DNA from: a virus
Direction: 5' to 3' (one strand)
DNA: 64,000 nucleotides
IMG/VR virus record: IMGVR_UViG_3300044695_006747
Span: 62,001-126,000 of that record
The position numbers and the translations under genes are program-made. Shown here piece after piece: positions 24,457-56,266 of the stretch; positions within the stretch are counted from its first letter, which is position 1, and each line of letters starts with the position of its first letter. A model generated the notes under the pieces. It did not search any database. It was not told where the DNA came from and saw only the letters and a program-made list of their open reading frames with translations.

Positions 24457-24822
24457 TCAGAATGCCACGGGTTCCTTTTCCGAAGACTTCTTTGATAACT
24501 TTGTAATCTTGGAGAAATTATTAACTCGCACACGAAGAGTGCTGTGTTTAACTCCATCTTTTTCCCAGCTATCATTTCTTAATGATCCCTCGACCATGAC
24601 TAAATCACCCTTCTTAAATGATTCGGCTATAATCTCAGCACCAGAATCCCATGCTTCACAATTGATAAATGTTGTTACCTTGTCCTTTTCGCCAGAAGCT
24701 TTGGTATACTCTCTAGAAACAGCAACTGTAAAATTAACAACAGAAACTTTTTTGTCTCCATTCTCTAACTTCCTTAGCTCTGGATCCCTAGTTAAATTAC
24801 CACGCAATAACGTAATATTCAT
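24457..24822 (-). CDS. ssb: Single-stranded DNA-binding protein
   Basis: 121 residues with a bacterial-type OB fold: MNITLLRGNLTRDPELRK, VNFTVAVSREYT, FINCEAWDSGAEIIAES, GDLVMVEGSLRNDSW, LRVRVNNF. It lacks the long acidic-tipped C-terminal tail of cellular SSB and ends in KEPVAF, so partner recruitment may differ. It coats single-stranded DNA at the fork. It appears to be its own transcription unit, with a strong sigma70-type promoter 45-72 bases upstream of the ATG, an AAAGGAG ribosome-binding site and a terminator hairpin after the stop. Confidence 0.92.
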   Translation of the reverse strand: MNITLLRGNLTRDPELRKLENGDKKVSVVNFTVAVSREYTKASGEKDKVTTFINCEAWDSGAEIIAESFKKGDLVMVEGSLRNDSWEKDGVKHSTLRVRVNNFSKITKLSKKSSEKEPVAF

Positions 24823-24866: not shown

Positions 24867-24894
24867 ATTATAAGATTTGTTTCCACACGGTCAA
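24867..24894 (-). promoter_or_regulatory. Sigma70-type promoter for ssb
   Basis: On the - strand: TTGACC (24894-24889), a 16-base spacer, then TATAAT (24872-24867, perfect -10). The -35 box contains the TGA stop of the polymerase C-terminal gene. The expected start lies near 24860, giving a leader of roughly 38 bases before the ssb ATG. Confidence 0.7.
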
Positions 24895-26435
24895 GGTTTT
24901 GGAATATAAGTCTTTTCAGCAACCAAACCATCTTTGTTTTTTGACTTTGATCCTTTTATAATCAAAATATTACCAACGAATAATTGATTTCTATATTGTT
25001 TATATGTTTCTGGAAAGTAAACAATCGAATCAACTACTGCCGTACCATCGTTAACAGAAACAAACGCCATTTCTGCTCCAACATCTTTTCCTTTTTTAGT
25101 TTTTACTACCCTGATATTTTCTACTTCTCCAGCAAGCATAATATTATTAGCTGAATAGCCATTTTTAAAATCTTTGCAAGAACACGTAACCATACTAATA
25201 TCATACATATCAATTTTAGAACAGCTAATAGAATAACCCAAAAGCATATTTTCTGTATCTGCTATCCATTCTATAGAATCATCTAATGAGTATGGTGGAT
25301 GTAGTAAACTATAAGACAACTGTTCTACGACACTTTTGCGTTTCGCTGTAATCTTACCCACTAGTACAACTGCTAAATTTTTAATTAATGGAGATTTAGT
25401 ATTATAAGATTTTTGTAATGTTTCGCACTCTTTATTAGTCAATTGTGTTAATATGTTATATTCAAATAACATCTGATTTCTTGTTAAGCCAAGATGATCT
25501 AGTGAGCCTGATTGTATAAGTGCTTTGCTCGCTGTAGAATTTATCTTATTCAAAACAAATAATAAATCCATCCATGAATAATCTTTTATATTTAGAGAAC
25601 TATTTTTTAGTATAGATATTAGTTTTTCGTATGCAGATTTCCCAAAACCCTTAACATCAGTTAGACCAAAAAATATCTTATTATTTTTTAATTCTACATA
25701 TTCATTCAATAGTCTTATGTCTGGTTTGCATACTTCAATATTCATTTCTATAGCATTTTGTACAAGTTCTTTTATTTCCGCTTGTGGATCTACTTTATCT
25801 TTTGCAAATCTTAAATATGAAGCAAAAAATACTCTTGGAAAATGTGCTTTTGCATATGCAGATAAATAACAATTCATAGCGTAGCTTACAGCATGGCTTT
25901 TATTAAAAGAATATCTTTGACTTTTTTCTATCCAATTAAATATTTCTTCTGCTTCTTTAGATTTTAAAATAGCCATTTTTTCACATCCGTTAACAAATGT
26001 CTTTTTGAGTTTGGCCATTTCTTCTGGTTTTTTCTTACCAATAGCCTTTCTTAACATGTCTGCTTCTTGAAGATTAAATCCAGCAACAACTCTGGCTATT
26101 TCCATAGCTTGTTCTTGATATACCATTTCCCCATAAGTTGTTTTTAAGATTGGCTCTAAACTTTCATGAAAATAATCTACAGCTTCTTCGCCATTCTTTT
26201 TGTCTATATAATGGTTACTAACACTTTTACCATCTCTAATAGCCTCCAAACATCCTGGCCTCATAATACTGATTAATGCGGCTAATTCCTCTATATTCGA
26301 TGGCTTAAGTTTTTTTGCCATCGATCTGCCTAGTCTAGATTCTAGCTGAAAGCACCCCTTAGTATTACCGCTAGAGATTAATGCCCAGGTTTTTGGACAA
26401 TCAAGATCCATTGAGGCTATGTTAGCATCAAACAT
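24891..26435 (-). CDS. dnaE: DNA polymerase III alpha subunit, C-terminal half (split gene)
   Basis: 514 residues matching the second half of family C polymerases. LISSGNTKGCFQLESRLGR opens it, then LAALISIMRPG and TTYGEMVYQEQAM with AGFNLQEADMLRKAIGKKK (fingers). YSFNKSHAVSYA follows, then the helix-hairpin-helix region (GFGKSAYEKL) and an OB fold (IMLAGEVENIRVVKTKKG) close to the C-terminus. The tau-binding domain after the OB fold seems absent. It lacks the PHP and catalytic-Asp regions, which are in the separate gene at 27293-29179. Its ATG overlaps the exonuclease stop by 8 bases. The two halves must assemble to form an active enzyme (inference). Confidence 0.88.
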   Translation of the reverse strand: MFDANIASMDLDCPKTWALISSGNTKGCFQLESRLGRSMAKKLKPSNIEELAALISIMRPGCLEAIRDGKSVSNHYIDKKNGEEAVDYFHESLEPILKTTYGEMVYQEQAMEIARVVAGFNLQEADMLRKAIGKKKPEEMAKLKKTFVNGCEKMAILKSKEAEEIFNWIEKSQRYSFNKSHAVSYAMNCYLSAYAKAHFPRVFFASYLRFAKDKVDPQAEIKELVQNAIEMNIEVCKPDIRLLNEYVELKNNKIFFGLTDVKGFGKSAYEKLISILKNSSLNIKDYSWMDLLFVLNKINSTASKALIQSGSLDHLGLTRNQMLFEYNILTQLTNKECETLQKSYNTKSPLIKNLAVVLVGKITAKRKSVVEQLSYSLLHPPYSLDDSIEWIADTENMLLGYSISCSKIDMYDISMVTCSCKDFKNGYSANNIMLAGEVENIRVVKTKKGKDVGAEMAFVSVNDGTAVVDSIVYFPETYKQYRNQLFVGNILIIKGSKSKNKDGLVAEKTYIPKP

Positions 26436-27120
26436 TCAAAAAAGCATCCTTGAATTTTATTTTATTGCACAAATTTTTATGTAGTTTAAGAAATCTTAAT
26501 AAGATAGAAGCACAATCTTTAACATCTTTTAAAGCGTCATGAGCATTATCTTTTGATATTCCAAGATAATCTCTAACATTGTCTAGAGATAAACTTTTAA
26601 TATCCTCTAAATCAAAAAACCAATAGTACACAAGATTCATTATATCTAATACATCTCTTGGAAAGAATACATTTGATTCACTCTCTTTATTAACATTACC
26701 ATACTTATTGCTAAGTCTGTTGATAATTTTAAGATCAAATCTATATATATTATATCCAGCTGCTATTGGTGCGGAAAATTGTGATTTTTTTGTTGTTCTA
26801 CAATGATATTTATCCAGGTACTCATTAAACATAGTCCAAGCCTGTTTTTGTGGCATTGATTTATGCCAAGAATCCAAAATATCTTCTTGAGAACATCCAC
26901 GAACTTTGGAATGAAATCCAAGAATATCGCTATCATACTTGAAGTCTGGGTCGTTGTCAAGTTTATCTGGCTTGACCATAATATTAAATTCTGAATTAGG
27001 AACAATATCCATTTTTGACGGATCTATCATAATAGCAGCTATTTGAACCGGACTACATATCGACGGATCCGCACCGTCTGTTTCAAAATCAAAAACGCAA
27101 ATTTTATTATATTGTTTCAT
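26428..27120 (-). CDS. DnaQ-like 3'-5' exonuclease (DEDDh)
   Basis: 230 residues with all three exonuclease motifs: FDFETDG (D11, E13), AGYNIYRFDL (D129) and HDALKDV (H194, D199), the DEDDh class of polymerase epsilon subunits. It lies between the two halves of the polymerase III alpha gene and overlaps the C-terminal half by 8 bases, so proofreading for that polymerase is the obvious role. It is co-transcribed with both halves. No clamp-binding motif is evident. Confidence 0.85.
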   Translation of the reverse strand: MKQYNKICVFDFETDGADPSICSPVQIAAIMIDPSKMDIVPNSEFNIMVKPDKLDNDPDFKYDSDILGFHSKVRGCSQEDILDSWHKSMPQKQAWTMFNEYLDKYHCRTTKKSQFSAPIAAGYNIYRFDLKIINRLSNKYGNVNKESESNVFFPRDVLDIMNLVYYWFFDLEDIKSLSLDNVRDYLGISKDNAHDALKDVKDCASILLRFLKLHKNLCNKIKFKDAFLNV

Positions 27121-27122
27121 TA

Positions 27123-27296
27123 TCAGTTAACTTGAACCTCTTGAAGTGGTGTTATCATAACTTTTTCATTATTGCTTTCTTTTAAAGCATTTAATACTTT
27201 GCAACAACTAACGCGCTCATCTTCTGCTTTAATATAAGTTTCATTATTATAAACAAATTTTTCTCCAACATTTAAATCTTTAAATAATTTATTCAT
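27123..27296 (-). CDS. Small 57-residue protein between the polymerase N-half and exonuclease
   Basis: Start ATG (27296) overlaps the stop of the polymerase N-terminal half as ATGA, with AAGGAG just upstream. The protein begins MNKLFKDLNVGEKFVYNNET, continues YIKAEDERVSCCKV, and ends TPLQEVQVN. A short beta protein of the type F-x-D-L-x-x-G-x-x-F is common among small phage proteins of unknown role. It is collinear with the replication operon. Confidence 0.6.
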   Translation of the reverse strand: MNKLFKDLNVGEKFVYNNETYIKAEDERVSCCKVLNALKESNNEKVMITPLQEVQVN

Positions 27297-29179
27297 ATTT
27301 TATTCTCCTTTAATAAATCTTGAATTGTCATAATTTTATCTAACATAGCAATACCAAGAATATCGAATTTAATAATACCTAAACTTTCCAAATCTTGCAT
27401 TTCCATACCGGCTATGGTCTGGTCATTCTTACTATCATAAACCATGGGACACACTTCTCCAAGAGGAGTAGGACTTATAGCAATACCAGCGGCGTGTTTA
27501 GATTGATTAGTTTTTGTTCCCTCAAGTCTTATTGCTTGTTCAAATCTTTTGGCCAATGGACCGGCTAAATTATCGTTATCATCAATATAGCACCATTCTG
27601 ATAGTTCTTTTGATTTATTTTCTAATGCCCATCTAATTATAGAAGATTCTCCATATTCTTCTTTCATATCTTGTAATTCATCTGCTATCTTGGCTTCGTC
27701 TGGTATATGCTTTGTAATATTGTTCATTTCTTCAAATGTAATATTACCATAAGCCCTAAGAACATCTTTTAATGCTCCTCGTCCTTTCATGGTATTAAAT
27801 GTTATCATCTGAGAAACCTTATCGTGTCCATAATTTTCTTTGATATAGTTAATAACATCTTCTCGTTTGTTAATTGGTACGTCTACGTCTATATCTGGCA
27901 TTGATATATGATCAGCAGTATTTCTACCAGAATTATAAAATCTATCAAAAATTAGCCCGTATTTTATGGGATCTATCGCTGTTATGCCAACCAAATACGA
28001 AACCATACAACCAGCAGCAGAACCTCGACCTGGGCCGGGTAACCACCCATTAGATCGAACATATTGAAGTATATCTTGAATTATTAAAAAGTAGCTGGAT
28101 AGTCCAGCGGTTTGTAAAACAGAGAGTTCGTACTTTATACGATCAACATATTCTGTAGTCATTTCTGTATTATTACTAACTTTATTAGCTATTTTATCTC
28201 TCCAGCCGTCTCTACATAGTTGTCTTAGATATTCTGCTTCTGATAGACCGTCTGGACATTTAAAACTAGGAAGTGTTGGTTTTGATGTTATATCATAGTT
28301 TTCACACAAAGAATTCACATAATTTGTGTTTTCGATTTCTTCTTCTGTGTGCAGAGCATTTATTTCTTCATGATCCAAAATATGATAGTTATCAGATATA
28401 AAGAATGTCTCCATACCAACTTCTTCGTTATTTAATATCTTGTTTGTAACATCAGTAAGCGTTGTTTTTAAATTATTACATAATAGTATTCTTTGATCAA
28501 CAGCATCTTCCTTTTCTGCATAATGAGCATCTGGAGTACATATTACTTTTAAACCAGTATCTCGTGCTATATCTCTTATGCATTCAGTAACTTTAGATTG
28601 CATAGGATTATTAATCTGATCCATCAATTGAGCTTCTAGAAAAAAATTATCAGATCCACCAAAAATATCTTTAAGATACGAAGCTTTTTCTATGAGAATA
28701 TTTTTCCAGTCAGGATCAATGCTCTTATAGTCTGTTATACTGTTTGCTAATACTGACCCTAAGTGACCAGCAAACCCTATAATATTTCCATCTAGCATTT
28801 CGCCAAGTCTTTTAAGATCTATTCTAGGTTTATAGTAATAAAATTCTGGCTTATTAGTTTCTGATATGATTTTAATTAAAGTTTTCCATCCAGAATAATT
28901 TTTAGCCAATATTACTAAATGACTAAGTTTTTTATTATCATTATTTTTAATTGTCGCATCATCACTGGAAATATATAATTCACAACCTAGAATTGGTTTA
29001 ATACCATTCTTTTTCATGCAAGAATGGAACTTTACCGAACCAGCTATATTACCGTGATCTGTTAATGCACACGCACCAATATTTGTATTAATACATCTTT
29101 TAGCTATCTGTTCTGGTTTTGATAATCCGTCTAAAATAGAAAAATGGCTGTGAACATGCAAAGGAGTATACAATTTCAT
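27293..29179 (-). CDS. dnaE: DNA polymerase III alpha subunit, N-terminal half with PHP and catalytic palm (split gene)
   Basis: 628 residues. PHP domain at the start (LHVHSHFSILDG, then ALTDHGN, and CTPDAHYAEKED), with the metal-binding His/Asp set largely present. The palm follows: GPGRGSAAGCMVSYLVGI (about 382-400), MPDIDVDVP with two catalytic Asp (about 428-435), and KFDILGI with the third (about 604). It stops soon after (LLKENKI), at the point where cellular DnaE continues to the segment that begins the separate gene at 26435. The halves are complementary with little or no sequence lost. Confidence 0.9.
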   Translation of the reverse strand: MKLYTPLHVHSHFSILDGLSKPEQIAKRCINTNIGACALTDHGNIAGSVKFHSCMKKNGIKPILGCELYISSDDATIKNNDNKKLSHLVILAKNYSGWKTLIKIISETNKPEFYYYKPRIDLKRLGEMLDGNIIGFAGHLGSVLANSITDYKSIDPDWKNILIEKASYLKDIFGGSDNFFLEAQLMDQINNPMQSKVTECIRDIARDTGLKVICTPDAHYAEKEDAVDQRILLCNNLKTTLTDVTNKILNNEEVGMETFFISDNYHILDHEEINALHTEEEIENTNYVNSLCENYDITSKPTLPSFKCPDGLSEAEYLRQLCRDGWRDKIANKVSNNTEMTTEYVDRIKYELSVLQTAGLSSYFLIIQDILQYVRSNGWLPGPGRGSAAGCMVSYLVGITAIDPIKYGLIFDRFYNSGRNTADHISMPDIDVDVPINKREDVINYIKENYGHDKVSQMITFNTMKGRGALKDVLRAYGNITFEEMNNITKHIPDEAKIADELQDMKEEYGESSIIRWALENKSKELSEWCYIDDNDNLAGPLAKRFEQAIRLEGTKTNQSKHAAGIAISPTPLGEVCPMVYDSKNDQTIAGMEMQDLESLGIIKFDILGIAMLDKIMTIQDLLKENKI

Positions 29180-30222
29180 TGTTTAATTTCGCCAGGGGCT
29201 TGGTAATGTCCAAATGAGTGATTGTTTTGTTTGTACAGACTTGTAACGTTGTCTATACCCAATATGTCTATGTCGTGTTTTACTTGTTCACATTTTGTCA
29301 TAAAAGAATCTTTTTTACACACTTGATTATCTCTATATTCAACATGAGGAACAACATGAGAATCTTCAAAAGTAGTTTTGCCGAAGTGACATAGTTTACT
29401 ACACATCCAGGTTTTTCGCAAGTTGGGTCTTCTGCTTTTTTTTATAATTTCAAACTTATCTTTAAGCATTAATTCTGTTGTGATCAGATCTTTTTTACCG
29501 AAACATATAGAAAAAGGCCCACCATCGTTTATAAAATTAATAGATACCATTATATTTTCTACATCTGGATATAGATGGCTTACAGCATAGTGATATATTC
29601 TTAATTGAGGATCATTTTCTAAACACTCTTGTGTTTTTTCTTTGCCTGTCGCCCAATTTAATCTTTTACCTGTTTTCCAATCTATAATTTCATAGAAGCT
29701 ATCATCCACTTTTGTTATAAGATCTATTGTGCCTTTTATAGCTAGGTATCCTTCCAAAATGCCTTCATCTGTTTGATATTTGTACTTTGCCCAAGGTTTT
29801 TTGATCGTGATATCAAAGTGTTGTTCTGGACAAACAATATTTCTATTTCTAGGATCAAACATTCCATTATTATGTGTTATTGTTTTTATTACCCAATCAT
29901 AACAGTCTTTCTTGTCTTTGGCTAACCATTCGTGATGAGCATTGTTGGTGGTATAATATTCATATACTTTATCAAATAATTTATCGATAGCATAATTTTT
30001 AATTTTTATTTGACCAACAATATCATCGGATATCGATTCTATTTTATCTTGTTCGGCTTTTTTTATCATGGCCAATAGTTCTAAAACTTTATGTACTATT
30101 GTGCCTTTGTCTGCCTTTTTATTAGAAGGTCCTCTCCATCCCAGCACATACTCTAAATAGTATTGTTGTTCGCACATAGAGTGTGCGTTATATGAAGAGC
30201 TTCTAAAATATGTAATTATAAT
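29176..30222 (-). CDS. RecB/Cas4-like PD-(D/E)xK nuclease, probable non-AUG start
   Basis: About 348 residues. Nuclease core: KADKGTIVHKVLE (His), then GTIDLITKVDDSFYEIIDWKTGK (D ... D-x-K) and QLRIYHYA (QxxxY). Several Cys follow (CSKLCHF, VCKKD, TKCEQ) that could hold a cluster or zinc. The first ATG (30177) begins inside a conserved-looking block. In-frame codons upstream read ITYFRSSSYNAHS before MCEQQYYLEYVLGW, matching the N-terminus I know from this phage family, with no stop until past 30222. The likely start is ATT at 30222 (AAGGA eight bases upstream), alternatives 30219 or 30216. Probable DNA-end processing or recombination role. Confidence 0.75.
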   Translation of the reverse strand: MIITYFRSSSYNAHSMCEQQYYLEYVLGWRGPSNKKADKGTIVHKVLELLAMIKKAEQDKIESISDDIVGQIKIKNYAIDKLFDKVYEYYTTNNAHHEWLAKDKKDCYDWVIKTITHNNGMFDPRNRNIVCPEQHFDITIKKPWAKYKYQTDEGILEGYLAIKGTIDLITKVDDSFYEIIDWKTGKRLNWATGKEKTQECLENDPQLRIYHYAVSHLYPDVENIMVSINFINDGGPFSICFGKKDLITTELMLKDKFEIIKKSRRPNLRKTWMCSKLCHFGKTTFEDSHVVPHVEYRDNQVCKKDSFMTKCEQVKHDIDILGIDNVTSLYKQNNHSFGHYQAPGEIKQ

Positions 30223-30794
30223 GGTAGTATTCCTTTATTTTTAAGAAATTGATCTAGTATTAGATTTTGTTCTTGTATTGTCAAGTTTTTGTTATCTAGT
30301 AGTAAATCAAAGTTCGATTGATCATATCTGTTAATATCTAATGCTGTTTCGCTGTCGTGCTGAGAATCAAAAGGATTTCTGGTTAATTTGATGACAGTTC
30401 CACCAACATTTTTGATGACCCTAACTTCATTGGGAAATCTGCAATCAGCCACAATTGCTAAATCAGGTTTTTCTTTTATAATCTTAGTAATAGTAGCATC
30501 AGCCCATACATTTTGTTGCATGGTTCTAAATATGTCTGTTCCAACGAATTGCATAACCTCTCTTGCTGTTAATCGTTTATTTTGCCATACGCAATTGACC
30601 AATTCATTTTTTTGGTCATCTGTGCCGTAGCATTGTTCATAAGTTAATCCTAATATATTCATACAAATATCCTTTTTAAGAGGATCAGCAAAATTATATA
30701 CTTTAACATTACCAATAAATTTATTGGCTATAAATTCTGAGCAAGTAGTTTTTCCTGATTGTTTTCGTCCAGCAAACGCTATTATTTTTGTCAT
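30216..30794 (-). CDS. Deoxynucleoside monophosphate kinase
   Basis: 192 residues with Walker A GRKQSGKT (residues 9-16) followed by CSEFIANKF. KVYNFADPLKKDI, ARE-VMQFVGTDIFR and VADCRFPNEV match the T4 gp1-like dNMP kinase family. It phosphorylates dNMPs to dNDPs, feeding the dNTP pool for replication together with the reductase and dCMP deaminase. It overlaps the primase stop (ATGA) and its own stop is embedded in the non-AUG start region of the nuclease. Confidence 0.85.
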   Translation of the reverse strand: MTKIIAFAGRKQSGKTTCSEFIANKFIGNVKVYNFADPLKKDICMNILGLTYEQCYGTDDQKNELVNCVWQNKRLTAREVMQFVGTDIFRTMQQNVWADATITKIIKEKPDLAIVADCRFPNEVRVIKNVGGTVIKLTRNPFDSQHDSETALDINRYDQSNFDLLLDNKNLTIQEQNLILDQFLKNKGILPL

Positions 30795-31903
30795 AAGGTT
30801 ATCTTTGATGTTATTTGTTCTTTAATCTCTGCGTCAGATAATTCTGCTATATCATTTTTAGATATATATATGTGTTGTATATTATATATCTTTTTACATT
30901 TATTTTCTATTTGTGTTCTAGCCTTTATGCCAGCATCGTCAGAATCTGTAATAATCACTAATGTCATAGCGCCACTAGTATCCAATAACATTTTCTGCTT
31001 ATCATTTAAATTGGACCCAAAGATAGCTACAGCATTATGAATACCATTGCTCTCCAACTTCCAAACATTACCAGGACTCTCTACAATTATAGCTGTTCTA
31101 GTTTCTTTGATGTATTTTTTGGCAAACCAAAAATTATACAAACAATTTTCTGCTGAGAAACCCTTGTTATGTTTCCATTTTGGTTTTAGGTTGTCATTAG
31201 TAGAGCGACCGCTACATCCTATCATGTAGTTATACTCTGAATCATAAATAGGAACTACGGCTCTGTCAGACATTTCTTTATTCGGTGTTTCACAATCACC
31301 AACATCATATTTGTCTAATATTTTAGGATCAAAACCCCTGGATATAAAATAAGGACTAGGAATTTTTAATAATTTTCTAACCTGATTTCTATTAGGATAA
31401 TTTGTGCCAGTTACCTGTTTCGTATTTAGTATTGTCAAGCTATTGACAAAATTATTTTTTTCTTTTTCTTTATTTGATACTTTGAGATCTTTGAGATTAA
31501 TCTTTCCAAAATCTGTCAAAAACTTCAGAGTTTCAGAAAAGCTAACAGTATCGTCTCCATCACAAGACCAGTTATGTTTTTTATGAGAAAGTATGCCTCT
31601 CACAAAACCTATAATGGATCCTTTAAAATGTTTTTCACATTGATGAGTTCTGCATTTCCAGTTACCTCTATATGACTCTCCAACATAATATAAATTTATA
31701 GCGGATTCGTTGTCTCCTCCGTGTATTGGACAAGACATACTAATAAACTTACTATTCTGTTTGTACTCTAAATTAAAGTACTCTAACAGATCAGTTATAT
31801 TATCGCATAAATGATCACACAAAATTTTGAGTTTTTGCTGATCAATCGAATGGAATGTTTTCTTCATCTTTGACTTCAAACCCGTCGTCATCGTCCTTTC
31901 CAT
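30791..31903 (-). CDS. DnaG-like DNA primase
   Basis: 370 residues. CHC2-like zinc site: CPIHGG ... WKCRTHQCEKHF (C58, H61, C84, C89 from the first ATG). The TOPRIM domain has AIIVESPG (about 269-276) and VIITDSDDAG (about 313-322) with the metal-binding acidic residues. It makes RNA primers and pairs with the helicase encoded just upstream. The first ATG overlaps the helicase 3' end by 62 bases; ATGs 4 and 12 codons later are possible, and the conserved part starts after them. No helicase-binding C-terminal domain is visible. Confidence 0.85.
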   Translation of the reverse strand: MERTMTTGLKSKMKKTFHSIDQQKLKILCDHLCDNITDLLEYFNLEYKQNSKFISMSCPIHGGDNESAINLYYVGESYRGNWKCRTHQCEKHFKGSIIGFVRGILSHKKHNWSCDGDDTVSFSETLKFLTDFGKINLKDLKVSNKEKEKNNFVNSLTILNTKQVTGTNYPNRNQVRKLLKIPSPYFISRGFDPKILDKYDVGDCETPNKEMSDRAVVPIYDSEYNYMIGCSGRSTNDNLKPKWKHNKGFSAENCLYNFWFAKKYIKETRTAIIVESPGNVWKLESNGIHNAVAIFGSNLNDKQKMLLDTSGAMTLVIITDSDDAGIKARTQIENKCKKIYNIQHIYISKNDIAELSDAEIKEQITSKITL

Positions 31904-33293
31904 TTACAATCTCCAATCTAGTGTTTCCTTCTGTAATTTTAGCACACCAACCCTTCATATGACAATTAATATAATCGTTATCATCTAGGCCAGCGCCGTG
32001 TCTACTGATTAATGGGATTAATTTTCTATTACCGTTTGTTGGCCCGTCTTCTGCTATTTCTTCGTCGCTTTTTCTTTTGAAAATAGAGAAATTACTACAC
32101 AACCATATGATTCTATCAGATCCGCTAGCGGTATCGGTACTTTCTTTTGTAATACCATCTCTATTTAATTGCACAAAGGCTACTATTGGAAGCTGATATT
32201 TACACGCAAAATTATGAAGTGTTGTCATCATAAAACCAAGAACTTGATATTCTTTCATATCTTGACTAATACCGGCGCTATCCATAAGCTTAAGATAGTC
32301 ATAAAAAATAACACACGGTTTTGCTGTGCCGTCTGAGTTCAGTCCTACTTCTTTTATAATCCATCTTCTCATTATAGATAATTGTTCATCAAAAGATTTA
32401 CCGGCAATAGATTTATGAAATAGTGGAGTTTCTTTTAGATCATTAACAGCGTCCTCTATTTTTTTCTTTAGTGATGGTGTTTGTGCGAATTTTCCACTCT
32501 CAATTTTATTTATTTCTATTTCTGTCATCATAGCCAGTATACGATGAATATGATCATCTTTGGTCATTTCAGTATCCATATTTAATACTGGTATTTTTAA
32601 TTTATTTGCTATATAAAAGCCCATATTGTCCGATAATAGTGTTTTACCAGTTTTTGGTCTTGCTGCTATAACATTTATCGTACTTTTTCTTAGTCCTCCG
32701 CCTATAGCAAAATCATAAGCAGGAAATCCTGTTGATATACCAACCTGATCTATTGGATTGGCAATAAGATCCTCGATATACTCCTCTAGATTCTGACTAA
32801 TCTGTACAGGACTACTATCTTGATCTTCCATAGATGTGCTAAAATTTAGTATTGGCTCCTCGACCAAACTCATTATATGAGATATTGGTTCCGAACCAGT
32901 TATATTGAGCACATTATTTTTGATATCGTCTAATTTTTTATGTAATTTTCTTGCTATTTCTAGTTTTTTGATTTTTGCCGCAAACTGTAAAAGATTATCA
33001 AAGTTAGCTGGAAACTCTAAAATTGCTTTTAGGTGCTGAGTTTCTTCTTTTTTCTGTAAAACATAATCAAGATCAAGCTCTTTTGCAGCGGAGAAGATTG
33101 ATGCTATATCTATTGATTGACAATTATGATCTACAAATATTTTCTTCAAACATTTGTATATTATAATATTGCTATCTATGGTAAAACTATTTTCATTTAT
33201 TATGTCTGCAACTTCAAGGTATGCTTTTTCACCATATTGGCATAATATAGATAGTACTGCTCTTTCAGCAGACGGATCAAATAAAATATTCAT
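31842..33293 (-). CDS. dnaB: DnaB-like replicative helicase
   Basis: 483 residues, close to the usual DnaB length. N-terminal helical domain (AERAVLSILCQYGEKAYL), linker helix, then RecA-type motor: STGFPAYDFAIGGGLRKS, Walker A ARPKTGKT (211-218), NMDTEM (motif 1a), Walker B VIFYDYL (328-334) and QLNRDG. A long charged C-terminal tail follows. It unwinds the fork ahead of the polymerase and recruits the primase encoded immediately downstream. Four bases separate it from the upstream zinc-ribbon gene. Confidence 0.9.
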   Translation of the reverse strand: MNILFDPSAERAVLSILCQYGEKAYLEVADIINENSFTIDSNIIIYKCLKKIFVDHNCQSIDIASIFSAAKELDLDYVLQKKEETQHLKAILEFPANFDNLLQFAAKIKKLEIARKLHKKLDDIKNNVLNITGSEPISHIMSLVEEPILNFSTSMEDQDSSPVQISQNLEEYIEDLIANPIDQVGISTGFPAYDFAIGGGLRKSTINVIAARPKTGKTLLSDNMGFYIANKLKIPVLNMDTEMTKDDHIHRILAMMTEIEINKIESGKFAQTPSLKKKIEDAVNDLKETPLFHKSIAGKSFDEQLSIMRRWIIKEVGLNSDGTAKPCVIFYDYLKLMDSAGISQDMKEYQVLGFMMTTLHNFACKYQLPIVAFVQLNRDGITKESTDTASGSDRIIWLCSNFSIFKRKSDEEIAEDGPTNGNRKLIPLISRHGAGLDDNDYINCHMKGWCAKITEGNTRLEIVNGKDDDDGFEVKDEENIPFD

Positions 33294-54074: not shown

Positions 54075-55166
54075 CTATGATATACACTGAATTAATTGTT
54101 TGGCCGCATGTTGCCAAGAATATTTTTGACCAGTTTTTACTCCATTTATATTAGTTCTAATATTATTTTTATATACATATCTCATATATTCTATTGTTTG
54201 ATCTATTTGTGTCTGGCCAATTTTAGCCCAATTACCGTTACCCAAGAACCATTTTCCATCAAACGCCGTTTCTGTATCAGTAATATCAATTAAAAATGCG
54301 TTATCTTTATCGCAAAATTCTGTATGTGCAGAGTAGTTTGTGGTGATAACCGGTTTATTCATTGACATGACTTCTAATAATTCTAGATTCCATCCTTCTG
54401 CTCGTGAAACAAATAGTCCGCAATCTGCTCGTGATATTAAATTAGCAACATCATTTTGAGTTTTAACCCTAGGAATAATTCTTATTTTTGATGCTAATGG
54501 TCCAGACGAATAAAAACTATGCCATTCGTCCATTTCTTTTTGAGAAAAACACGTTGGATCCGACGAGCCCATTAACCACAATTCGACATTATCATTGACA
54601 GAAAATGCTGAATTAAATAAATTCAATAAAATATCATATCCTTTTCTTACTTCCCATTTTCCTATCATGATAAAAACATAGGGGTCGTCGTCCTTTTTTG
54701 CGTTTTTATCTGATAATGTGTGATCAAAAATAGTACTATCTATACCTAAATGTACAATATTAATATTTTGAGTCATCCCATTATCTATTAATACATTTTT
54801 AGCCCATTGTGATGATACGATAAGTTCATCTGGAACTTTTAAATGTTTCTTCTCTAGATCATTAAACCTGTCTAACTCAAAAAATGGAAAACCAAAATAC
54901 TTACCAGTACCTACTCTTAGTTCCAAATCAAATTGATGCCATATCTTTACGCATGGGGATTTTGGGTCATACTCATTATTTATAATACTACCAAGCAACT
55001 CATCATCTTCTTGAGTATCTAGAGGAGGAATATATCCTGGTTGCACAGTAATCGGATGAACGTGAATATCGCAGCCGAGATGTTTAGCGTTTTTAGCTAA
55101 GTTCCATCCCACAACTCCATATCCCGTATAGCCCATAGGGCTCATTAAAATCATTTTATTGTTCAT
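54075..55166 (-). CDS. GT4-family glycosyltransferase
   Basis: 363 residues. GT-B layout: KMILMSPMGYTGYGVVGWNL, donor-domain start PYVFIMIGKWEVRKGYDILL, then the signature GLFVSRAEGWNLELLEVMSM with E-x7-E. Last gene of the sugar cassette, joined to the GMP reductase gene by an ATGA overlap. Acceptor and donor unknown. Confidence 0.75.
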   Translation of the reverse strand: MNNKMILMSPMGYTGYGVVGWNLAKNAKHLGCDIHVHPITVQPGYIPPLDTQEDDELLGSIINNEYDPKSPCVKIWHQFDLELRVGTGKYFGFPFFELDRFNDLEKKHLKVPDELIVSSQWAKNVLIDNGMTQNINIVHLGIDSTIFDHTLSDKNAKKDDDPYVFIMIGKWEVRKGYDILLNLFNSAFSVNDNVELWLMGSSDPTCFSQKEMDEWHSFYSSGPLASKIRIIPRVKTQNDVANLISRADCGLFVSRAEGWNLELLEVMSMNKPVITTNYSAHTEFCDKDNAFLIDITDTETAFDGKWFLGNGNWAKIGQTQIDQTIEYMRYVYKNNIRTNINGVKTGQKYSWQHAAKQLIQCIS

Positions 55167-56266
55167 TTTTCATATACTCTGTTGTGTGTGTTATTTACTT
55201 GAATGAATGTTGTTTTTTTGCCAAAGTCTTTAATTTTTGTAGCTCCAATATATGTACATGCGCTTCTTAATCCTCCATAAATATCTTGAAGAATTTCGAC
55301 AGCTTTACCTTTATACGGAACGGTGACACATTTTCCTTCTGCTGTTCTGTATGTCGCCACCCCATCATGATGCTTGTCCATAGCATTTTTGCTACTCATG
55401 CCATAGTATTGTAATGATACTTTGCGTTTTTCAACATCAGGAGATTTTGGATCGAAAGGTTGCCATCCTCCGCTTCTCATTTTCCATTCATATTTCCATT
55501 CTCCTTCACATTCATCAGCACCAGCAAACATACTGCCAAGCATTACAAAATCACTATTACCACCAAAAGCTTTGCAAATATCTCCAACTACTTTGCACCC
55601 ACCATCAGAACAAATATGACCACCAAGACCATGAGCAGCGTCAGCACATTCCATTATGGCGCTCAGTTGTGGGTATCCTACGCCAGTTTTTAAACGAGTG
55701 GTACAAACACTACCCGACCCTATACCAACCTTGACTATATCAACTTTTCCATGAATGATTAGTTCTTCTGTCATCTCTGGAGTAACCACATTTCCGGCCA
55801 TTAAAATAATTTCAGGAAATAATTTACGAATATGAGCAGCAGTTTTTACAAATTGTTCTGTATATCCATTTGCAACATCAAGACAAATATTTGGAAAATA
55901 CCCATTACTACTTTTTATAGTGTTAAAAACTCTCTCCAGTTTTTCTATATCTTTTTTAGATGTTCCAGTAGAATACCATATGAGTTCTGTTGGTTCAATA
56001 AATAAATTTACTAAAACATCTTCATCATAATGTTTATGTAAACAGGTAATTGAGCCAAGAGGAGATAATGATCTACCCATAGAAGATGTTCCAACCGTGT
56101 CCATATTGGCAACCATGATAGGAACACAACTAAGTTCTCTAGGACTGTGAGCAAATCTAAAACTTCGTGCTAAATCAACTTCTGATCTACTTTTTAGTGT
56201 TGATCTTTTTGGACGAATAAGAACATCATCAAAATCTAGTTTAGTTTCATTAATTATTTTTTGCAT
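55163..56266 (-). CDS. guaC: GMP reductase
   Basis: 367 residues. [16 protein letters not shown] starts the barrel; the catalytic loop is [13 protein letters not shown] (Cys188, Thr190). [27 protein letters not shown] and the flap [10 protein letters not shown] ... [15 protein letters not shown] follow in GMP reductase order. No CBS domains, so it is not IMP dehydrogenase. It converts GMP to IMP using NADPH. About 20 extra residues precede the flap compared with the family. It is in the sugar cassette. Confidence 0.85.

What the first reader, a model, noticed from the sequence alone, without database searches (positions are those of the whole stretch)
24891..29179. DNA polymerase III alpha split into two genes around its own proofreading exonuclease
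The N-half (27293-29179) ends after the third catalytic Asp region (KFDILGI). The C-half (24891-26435) resumes just before the GxFQLES segment. A 57-residue ORF and a DnaQ-like exonuclease lie between them in the same operon. No conserved motif appears to be missing. The break is not at the cyanobacterial split-intein site (FNKSHAVSYA is intact here), and I see no intein motifs at either end. Polymerase and proofreader may therefore form a three-chain complex, and the gene order (N-half, exonuclease, C-half) could aid assembly.
Basis: partly seen in the sequence, partly recalled or inferred. Interest (0 to 1): 0.7.

Follow-up and report, generated by a model that had tools for sequence, protein, structure and literature searches.

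The report
Phage DNA polymerase split around proofreader
A large uncultured group of phages makes its main DNA-copying enzyme from two separate genes with a probable proofreading nuclease gene always between them; the break falls in a harmless surface loop, is old and kept by selection, and is not mended by any visible splicing element, which suggests this enzyme can work when assembled from parts.

Summary
The N-half (27293-29179) carries the PHP domain, palm and thumb. The C-half (24891-26435) carries fingers, helix-hairpin-helix and OB fold. Together they cover a DnaE-type Pol III alpha model (TIGR00594) at positions 1-575 and 580-1022 of 1022. Only a surface loop is lost, about E. coli residues 574-585. 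A 57-aa ORF and a DEDDh exonuclease with intact motifs lie between. It is not an assembly error: in all 130 recovered loci holding both sides of the break, the exonuclease gene is between the halves. dN/dS is 0.06-0.12 on the halves, 0.02 on the exonuclease.

No intein sits at this joint in any relative, no Rfam intron is found, and the record holds no second alpha, PolA or PolB. Relatives carry inteins at three other sites, one a split intein that cuts the N-half again.

The clade is monophyletic. Rossellomorea phage phiT1 is split at the same loop without the exonuclease; the tree places it elsewhere (AU p=0.016), so the loop was probably broken at least twice. Phage DnaE is also split at other sites.

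Most likely the halves reassemble non-covalently and the exonuclease proofreads. Complex formation is untested. New variant of a known kind.

The parts
27293..29179 (-). DnaE N-half, 628 aa: PHP domain, palm, thumb; all three catalytic Asp (D429, D431, D606)
   Evidence: nine PHP metal-ligand positions (H8 H10 D17 H42 E67 H87 H139 D217 H219) invariant in 30 aligned N-halves
27123..27296 (-). 57-aa ORF; small beta-barrel-like protein, phrog_2183, function unknown; overlaps the N-half by 4 nt
   Evidence: not found in deep branches
26428..27120 (-). DnaQ-like (DEDDh) 3'-5' exonuclease, 230 aa; D11, E13, D129, H194, D199 invariant in 27 aligned sequences
24891..26435 (-). DnaE C-half, 514 aa: fingers, helix-hairpin-helix, OB fold; its ATG overlaps the exonuclease stop by 8 nt
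24457..24822 (-). single-strand DNA-binding protein, next gene in the same run; conserved next to the C-half in most relatives
29176..30177 (-). PD-(D/E)XK (Cas4/RecB-like) nuclease, overlaps the N-half start by 4 nt; conserved upstream neighbour
30791..33293 (-). TOPRIM primase (30791-31903) and DnaB-like helicase (31842-33293): upstream part of the replication gene run

Best explanation
This is a naturally divided DnaE-type DNA polymerase III alpha of a large uncultured phage lineage. The chain is cut in the loop joining palm and fingers. One protein carries PHP, palm and thumb with the whole catalytic Asp triad; the other carries the fingers, which in intact DnaE help to hold the incoming nucleotide and template, with the DNA-binding HhH and OB parts. 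Shown: both halves are open, conserved, under purifying selection, always in the same order, with an exonuclease gene of intact active-site motifs between them, and no intein at the joint. Inferred: the halves fold separately and dock through the palm-fingers interface of the intact enzyme to build one active site, and the exonuclease joins them as the 3'-5' proofreader in the role of epsilon. Overlapping start and stop codons in the window suggest coupled translation, which may balance the chains but is not essential, since other genes lie between the parts in some relatives. Rejoining by splicing is not needed and not seen.
For: Model coverage 1-575 plus 580-1022 of 1022. E. coli alignment puts the break in the loop K574-D585. 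Catalytic residues and PHP ligands invariant in 30 N-halves. Exonuclease DEDDh motifs invariant in 27 sequences. 130 of 130 loci keep N, exonuclease, C in order. dN/dS about 0.06 (N) and 0.12 (C), exonuclease about 0.02 (dS near saturation). No intein segment at the joint in 89 distinct junctions. No second alpha, PolA or PolB in the record. The split clade is one group with 100/100 support. phiT1 is cut in the same loop with nothing lost and a joint clade with it is rejected (AU p=0.016), so the loop tolerates a break. AlphaFold2 of the C-half alone: mean pLDDT 85.5, matching DnaE structures over its length.
Against: No complex was modelled or measured; only single chains could be folded. The exonuclease as proofreader rests on motifs and gene neighbourhood; its match to solved DnaQ proteins is weak, and ExoI, PolC-exo and oligoribonuclease-type enzymes score similarly. 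The PHP site is intact and might proofread instead. No bacterial beta clamp is encoded, and by eye no clamp-binding motif is conserved in the C-half. The phage record may be incomplete.
Confidence: 0.8

Rival explanations
1. The halves are rejoined covalently: by protein trans-splicing with unrecognised intein ends, or by an RNA intron that removes the 57-aa ORF and the exonuclease.
For: Relatives do carry inteins in these very genes, including a split intein in the N-half, so the lineage probably uses trans-splicing.
Against: N-half tails run only about 20-35 residues past KFDILG and C-halves start with 0-30 extra residues, too short for intein halves and without intein motifs. No intron family match. 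The 4- and 8-nt overlaps leave little room for intron ends, and the tails differ in length and sequence.
Confidence: 0.04
2. The exonuclease is only a passenger (once an invading gene that broke dnaE) and the polymerase proofreads through its PHP domain, as reported for some bacterial DnaE enzymes (from general knowledge).
For: All PHP metal-ligand positions are invariant. phiT1 has the same break without an exonuclease between. Exonuclease similarity to epsilon is weak.
Against: The exonuclease is kept in 130 of 130 loci with invariant active-site motifs down to 28% identity and the lowest dN/dS of the measured set.
Confidence: 0.18
3. The split alpha is decayed or a repair enzyme, and the host replicase copies the phage genome.
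For: No bacterial beta clamp in the record; the record may be incomplete.
Against: Strong purifying selection and intact motifs; it sits in a run of helicase, primase, SSB and nuclease genes; the record has no PolA or PolB and encodes a clamp-loader-like ATPase.
Confidence: 0.06
4. Artefact: sequencing or assembly error in one gene.
For: None in the data.
Against: Two whole genes lie between the halves, and the arrangement recurs in 130 loci.
Confidence: 0.005

Closest known systems
Cyanobacterial DnaE (split alpha rejoined by the DnaE split intein)
   Same: DnaE alpha encoded in two genes
   Different: Here the break is at the palm-fingers loop, not at the FNKSH site, and no intein is present at the joint; the genes are neighbours flanking an exonuclease
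Split minimal Pol III alpha of group 2.2 jumbo phages (PMC7824862)
   Same: Phage Pol III alpha in two separate proteins, no intein mentioned in the passage read
   Different: That form is described as minimal, its genes lie far apart, and it accompanies a PolB; here the genes are clustered around an exonuclease and no PolB or PolA is found in the record
Rossellomorea phage phiT1 gp20/gp18 (PV767480)
   Same: Split in the same loop with nothing lost; a small ORF (49 aa) between
   Different: No exonuclease between; separate place in the tree (AU p=0.016); both genes merely annotated as alpha subunit
Other split phage DnaE genes (Bacillus phage Jayan, Cellulophaga phage phiST, Microbacterium phage Tedro, Bacillus phage vB_BpsS-140)
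   Same: DnaE divided into two neighbouring genes
   Different: Broken at other places: before the catalytic DxD, or between PHP and palm
Fractured genes with split inteins (Dassa et al. 2009, known here only through citing papers and memory)
   Same: Relatives L021, L030, L035 have this arrangement in the N-half: IntN stop, free endonuclease, IntC
   Different: The N/C joint studied here has no intein, and the gene between is a DEDDh exonuclease, not a homing endonuclease
Bacterial epsilon (DnaQ) proofreading subunit
   Same: DEDDh exonuclease motifs, encoded with alpha
   Different: Only weak sequence similarity; short C-terminal tail; placed inside the divided alpha locus

Membership tests
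DnaE-type Pol III alpha | PHP, palm/thumb, fingers, HhH, OB in order with catalytic Asp triad | tested here: met
   (two chains taken together)
DnaE-type Pol III alpha | DnaE rather than PolC layout | tested here: met
   E 1e-144 and 4e-89 to TIGR00594 against 1e-28 and 5e-6 to PolC; no exonuclease inserted in PHP
DnaE-type Pol III alpha | single polypeptide with C-terminal tau-binding domain (as in E. coli) | tested here: not met
   two genes; C-half ends at model position 1052 of 1146
DnaE-type Pol III alpha | DNA polymerase activity | not testable with these tools
   -
Cyanobacterial split-intein DnaE | break at the FNKSH site | tested here: not met
   FNKSHAVSYA intact
Cyanobacterial split-intein DnaE | IntN and IntC at the two ends | tested here: not met
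DnaQ/epsilon DEDDh exonuclease | DxE, D, HxAxxD motifs | tested here: met
   D11 E13 D129 H194 D199 invariant
DnaQ/epsilon DEDDh exonuclease | binds alpha and the clamp | not testable with these tools
   no clear clamp-binding motif seen by eye
Fractured gene with split intein | split intein halves at the break | tested here: not met
   met only at another site in L021, L030, L035, L072
Jumbo-phage split Pol III alpha | unlinked genes, minimal domains, accompanied by PolB | tested here: not met
Intron-interrupted gene | group I or II intron between coding parts | tested here: not met
   overlapping ORFs

The most novel reading that the evidence does not exclude
A replicative polymerase whose active site is built across two separately encoded chains, palm on one and fingers on the other, with the proofreading exonuclease as an obligatory third subunit that locks the halves together, so that only a proofreading-competent enzyme can assemble. 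In some relatives the N-half is itself in two genes joined by protein trans-splicing, giving an alpha made from three genes.
Probability: 0.25. Interest if true: 0.75.

Novelty: new variant of a known kind. Interest (0 to 1): 0.52.

Why it matters
DnaE is normally one long chain whose palm and fingers must move together in every cycle. A large natural clade, and separately phiT1, cut it at the same loop, which marks that loop as a safe break point and gives a natural two-part replicase for studying palm-fingers coupling. The same genes collect inteins at three other sites but never, in the relatives seen, at this joint, which helps to separate breaks that need repair from breaks that do not. 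phiT1 offers an isolated phage in which the question can be tested.

Tried and rejected
Sequencing or assembly error: rejected by 130 loci with the same order. Intein at the joint: no extra segment of intein length or motif in 89 distinct junctions. Intron: nothing from Rfam. Hidden full-length alpha or another polymerase in the record: none. Same origin as the phiT1 split: joint clade rejected, AU p=0.016, though with long branches. Fused intermediate: distant scans from L110, L161 and phiT1 gave only split relatives or nothing; the nearest single-chain DnaE are fecal phage contigs at 34% identity. The 57-aa ORF as a fixed part: dropped, absent in deep branches; its fold is a small barrel with only weak EF-P/eIF5A likeness. 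Close phage relatives by terminase: none in the phage collection. Dassa et al. 2009 could not be read.

Full report
OBSERVATION. The N-half has PHP and a complete PF07733; the C-half has the finger domain from position 20 of 166, HHH_6 and a weak OB fold; the 230-aa ORF is an RNase_T-class exonuclease; the 57-aa ORF has only a phage family of unknown function. Against TIGR00594 the N-half covers 1-575 and the C-half 580-1022 of 1022. Against E. coli alpha the break falls between the helix after D555 and the DIAAIPLDD segment, i.e. loop K574-D585. Nothing conserved is lost at the break. About 100 C-terminal residues of E. coli alpha have no counterpart.

REST OF THE RECORD. The window is part of a 186,823-base IMG/VR virus record, completeness unknown. 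It has one PF07733 match and one PF17657 match, both these genes, no PolA or PolB, no bacterial beta clamp, and a clamp-loader-like ATPase, ligase and rIIB. Its terminase has only distant relatives among 50,697 phage records, so the lineage looks essentially uncultured. Two relatives sit on short contigs binned with Bacteroidota MAGs, a weak host hint.

CONSERVATION. Three scans of viral contigs, from the C-half, the N-half and a distant C-half, gave about 150 loci. In all 130 that hold the end of the N-half and the start of the C-half, a copy of the exonuclease lies between; some contigs overlap, so these are not 130 independent genomes. Identity falls to 44-52% for the halves and 27-39% for the exonuclease in the deeper branches. 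The 57-aa ORF is not found in deep branches. The parts need not touch: 3.7 kb separate exonuclease and C-half in L059, 3.1 kb of other genes lie between N-half and exonuclease in L159, 1.8 kb between exonuclease and C-half in L161. dN/dS is about 0.06 for the N-half, 0.12 for the C-half and 0.02 for the exonuclease, with dS near saturation.

ACTIVE SITES. In 30 N-halves the positions matching the catalytic Asp (D429, D431, D606) and nine PHP metal ligands are invariant. In 27 exonucleases D11, E13, D129, H194 and D199 are invariant. So the enzyme may carry two nuclease sites, PHP and exonuclease; which one proofreads is open.

THE JOINT. In 89 distinct junctions the N-half ends about 20-35 residues after the start of KFDILG. 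C-halves begin either directly (window and near relatives) or with a segment of about 20-30 residues holding a CGC motif (most others). Neither is an intein. No intron family matches, and the ORFs overlap by 4 and 8 nt, which fits coupled translation.

INTEINS ELSEWHERE IN THE SAME GENES. Two close relatives (L002, L018) have a cis intein with an HNH-like part in the C-half at RPG|C. L021, L030 and L035 have a split intein at GRG|S in the N-half with a free-standing endonuclease ORF between the intein halves; L072 has the same split intein without it. L161 has a small intein at FNK|S in the C-half. Intein models support them, some under the curated cut-off. Splicing is inferred, not tested. 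In the split-intein relatives alpha is spread over three genes, with one joint apparently mended by trans-splicing and the other not.

ORIGIN. The N-exonuclease-C lineage is one clade, support 100/100. The nearest single-chain DnaE are fecal phage contigs, 34% identity. Rossellomorea phage phiT1 has N (573 aa), a 49-aa ORF and C (469 aa) cut in the same loop. It groups with the single-chain Brevibacillus phage Sundance (98/95), and a joint clade with the exonuclease lineage is rejected with p-AU 0.016. Long branches are present, so two origins are likely rather than proven. Other phage DnaE genes are cut elsewhere. phiT1 had no relative in a viral-contig scan by short patterns.

MECHANISM. Most likely the two chains dock through the palm-fingers interface and the exonuclease acts as proofreader. 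The C-half alone is predicted to fold (mean pLDDT 85.5) and matches DnaE structures over its length. The complex could not be modelled here, so the docking is inference.

PLACE AMONG KNOWN SYSTEMS. It is DnaE by domains and motifs, but in two chains. It is not the cyanobacterial type and not the jumbo-phage type of PMC7824862. Searches of the open paper library found no description of this arrangement; many papers are not held there, so earlier mention cannot be excluded. Verdict: new variant of a known kind, real and well conserved, with the decisive biochemistry still to be done.

Noticed in passing
L021:2978-6054, L030:2993-6082, L035:3014-6074, L072:3829-6120: N-half fractured again at GPGRG|S by a split intein; in L021, L030, L035 a free-standing PD-(D/E)xK-like endonuclease ORF lies between the intein halves, in L072 it is absent.
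   Followed up: partly
L002:7001-9265, L018:7001-9283: Near relatives of the window carry an HNH-type intein in the C-half at RPG|C; the site is empty in the window.
   Followed up: partly
L161:6902-9007: Small intein at FNK|SHAVS in the C-half, close to the cyanobacterial DnaE split-intein site, in one of the deepest relatives.
   Followed up: partly
C-half N-termini of most relatives, e.g. L009:6926, L159:6941: Extra N-terminal segment of about 20-30 residues with a conserved CGC motif, absent in the window's own close group; role unknown.
   Followed up: partly
L164 (Rossellomorea phage phiT1), 2986-6268: Isolated phage with DnaE split in the same loop and a 49-aa ORF between; a handy test system.
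   Followed up: yes
L179 (Alicyclobacillus phage MMB025), 3992-8354: DnaE interrupted in the fingers region with an annotated endonuclease gene between the parts; possible intron or fractured gene.
   Followed up: no
whole record G000: No bacterial beta clamp found although a clamp-loader-like ATPase is encoded; the processivity factor is unidentified.
   Followed up: partly
window 55163-56266; L159:5185-6264: Phage-encoded IMP dehydrogenase (by eye); in L159 the similar gene lies between N-half and exonuclease.
   Followed up: no
L083/L018, PDDEXK and N genes: Each of these two genes appears in two frames in this contig, possibly assembly errors.
   Followed up: no
L184, L185: Relatives on contigs binned with Chitinophagia and Flavobacteriales MAGs; weak hint of Bacteroidota hosts.
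   Followed up: partly
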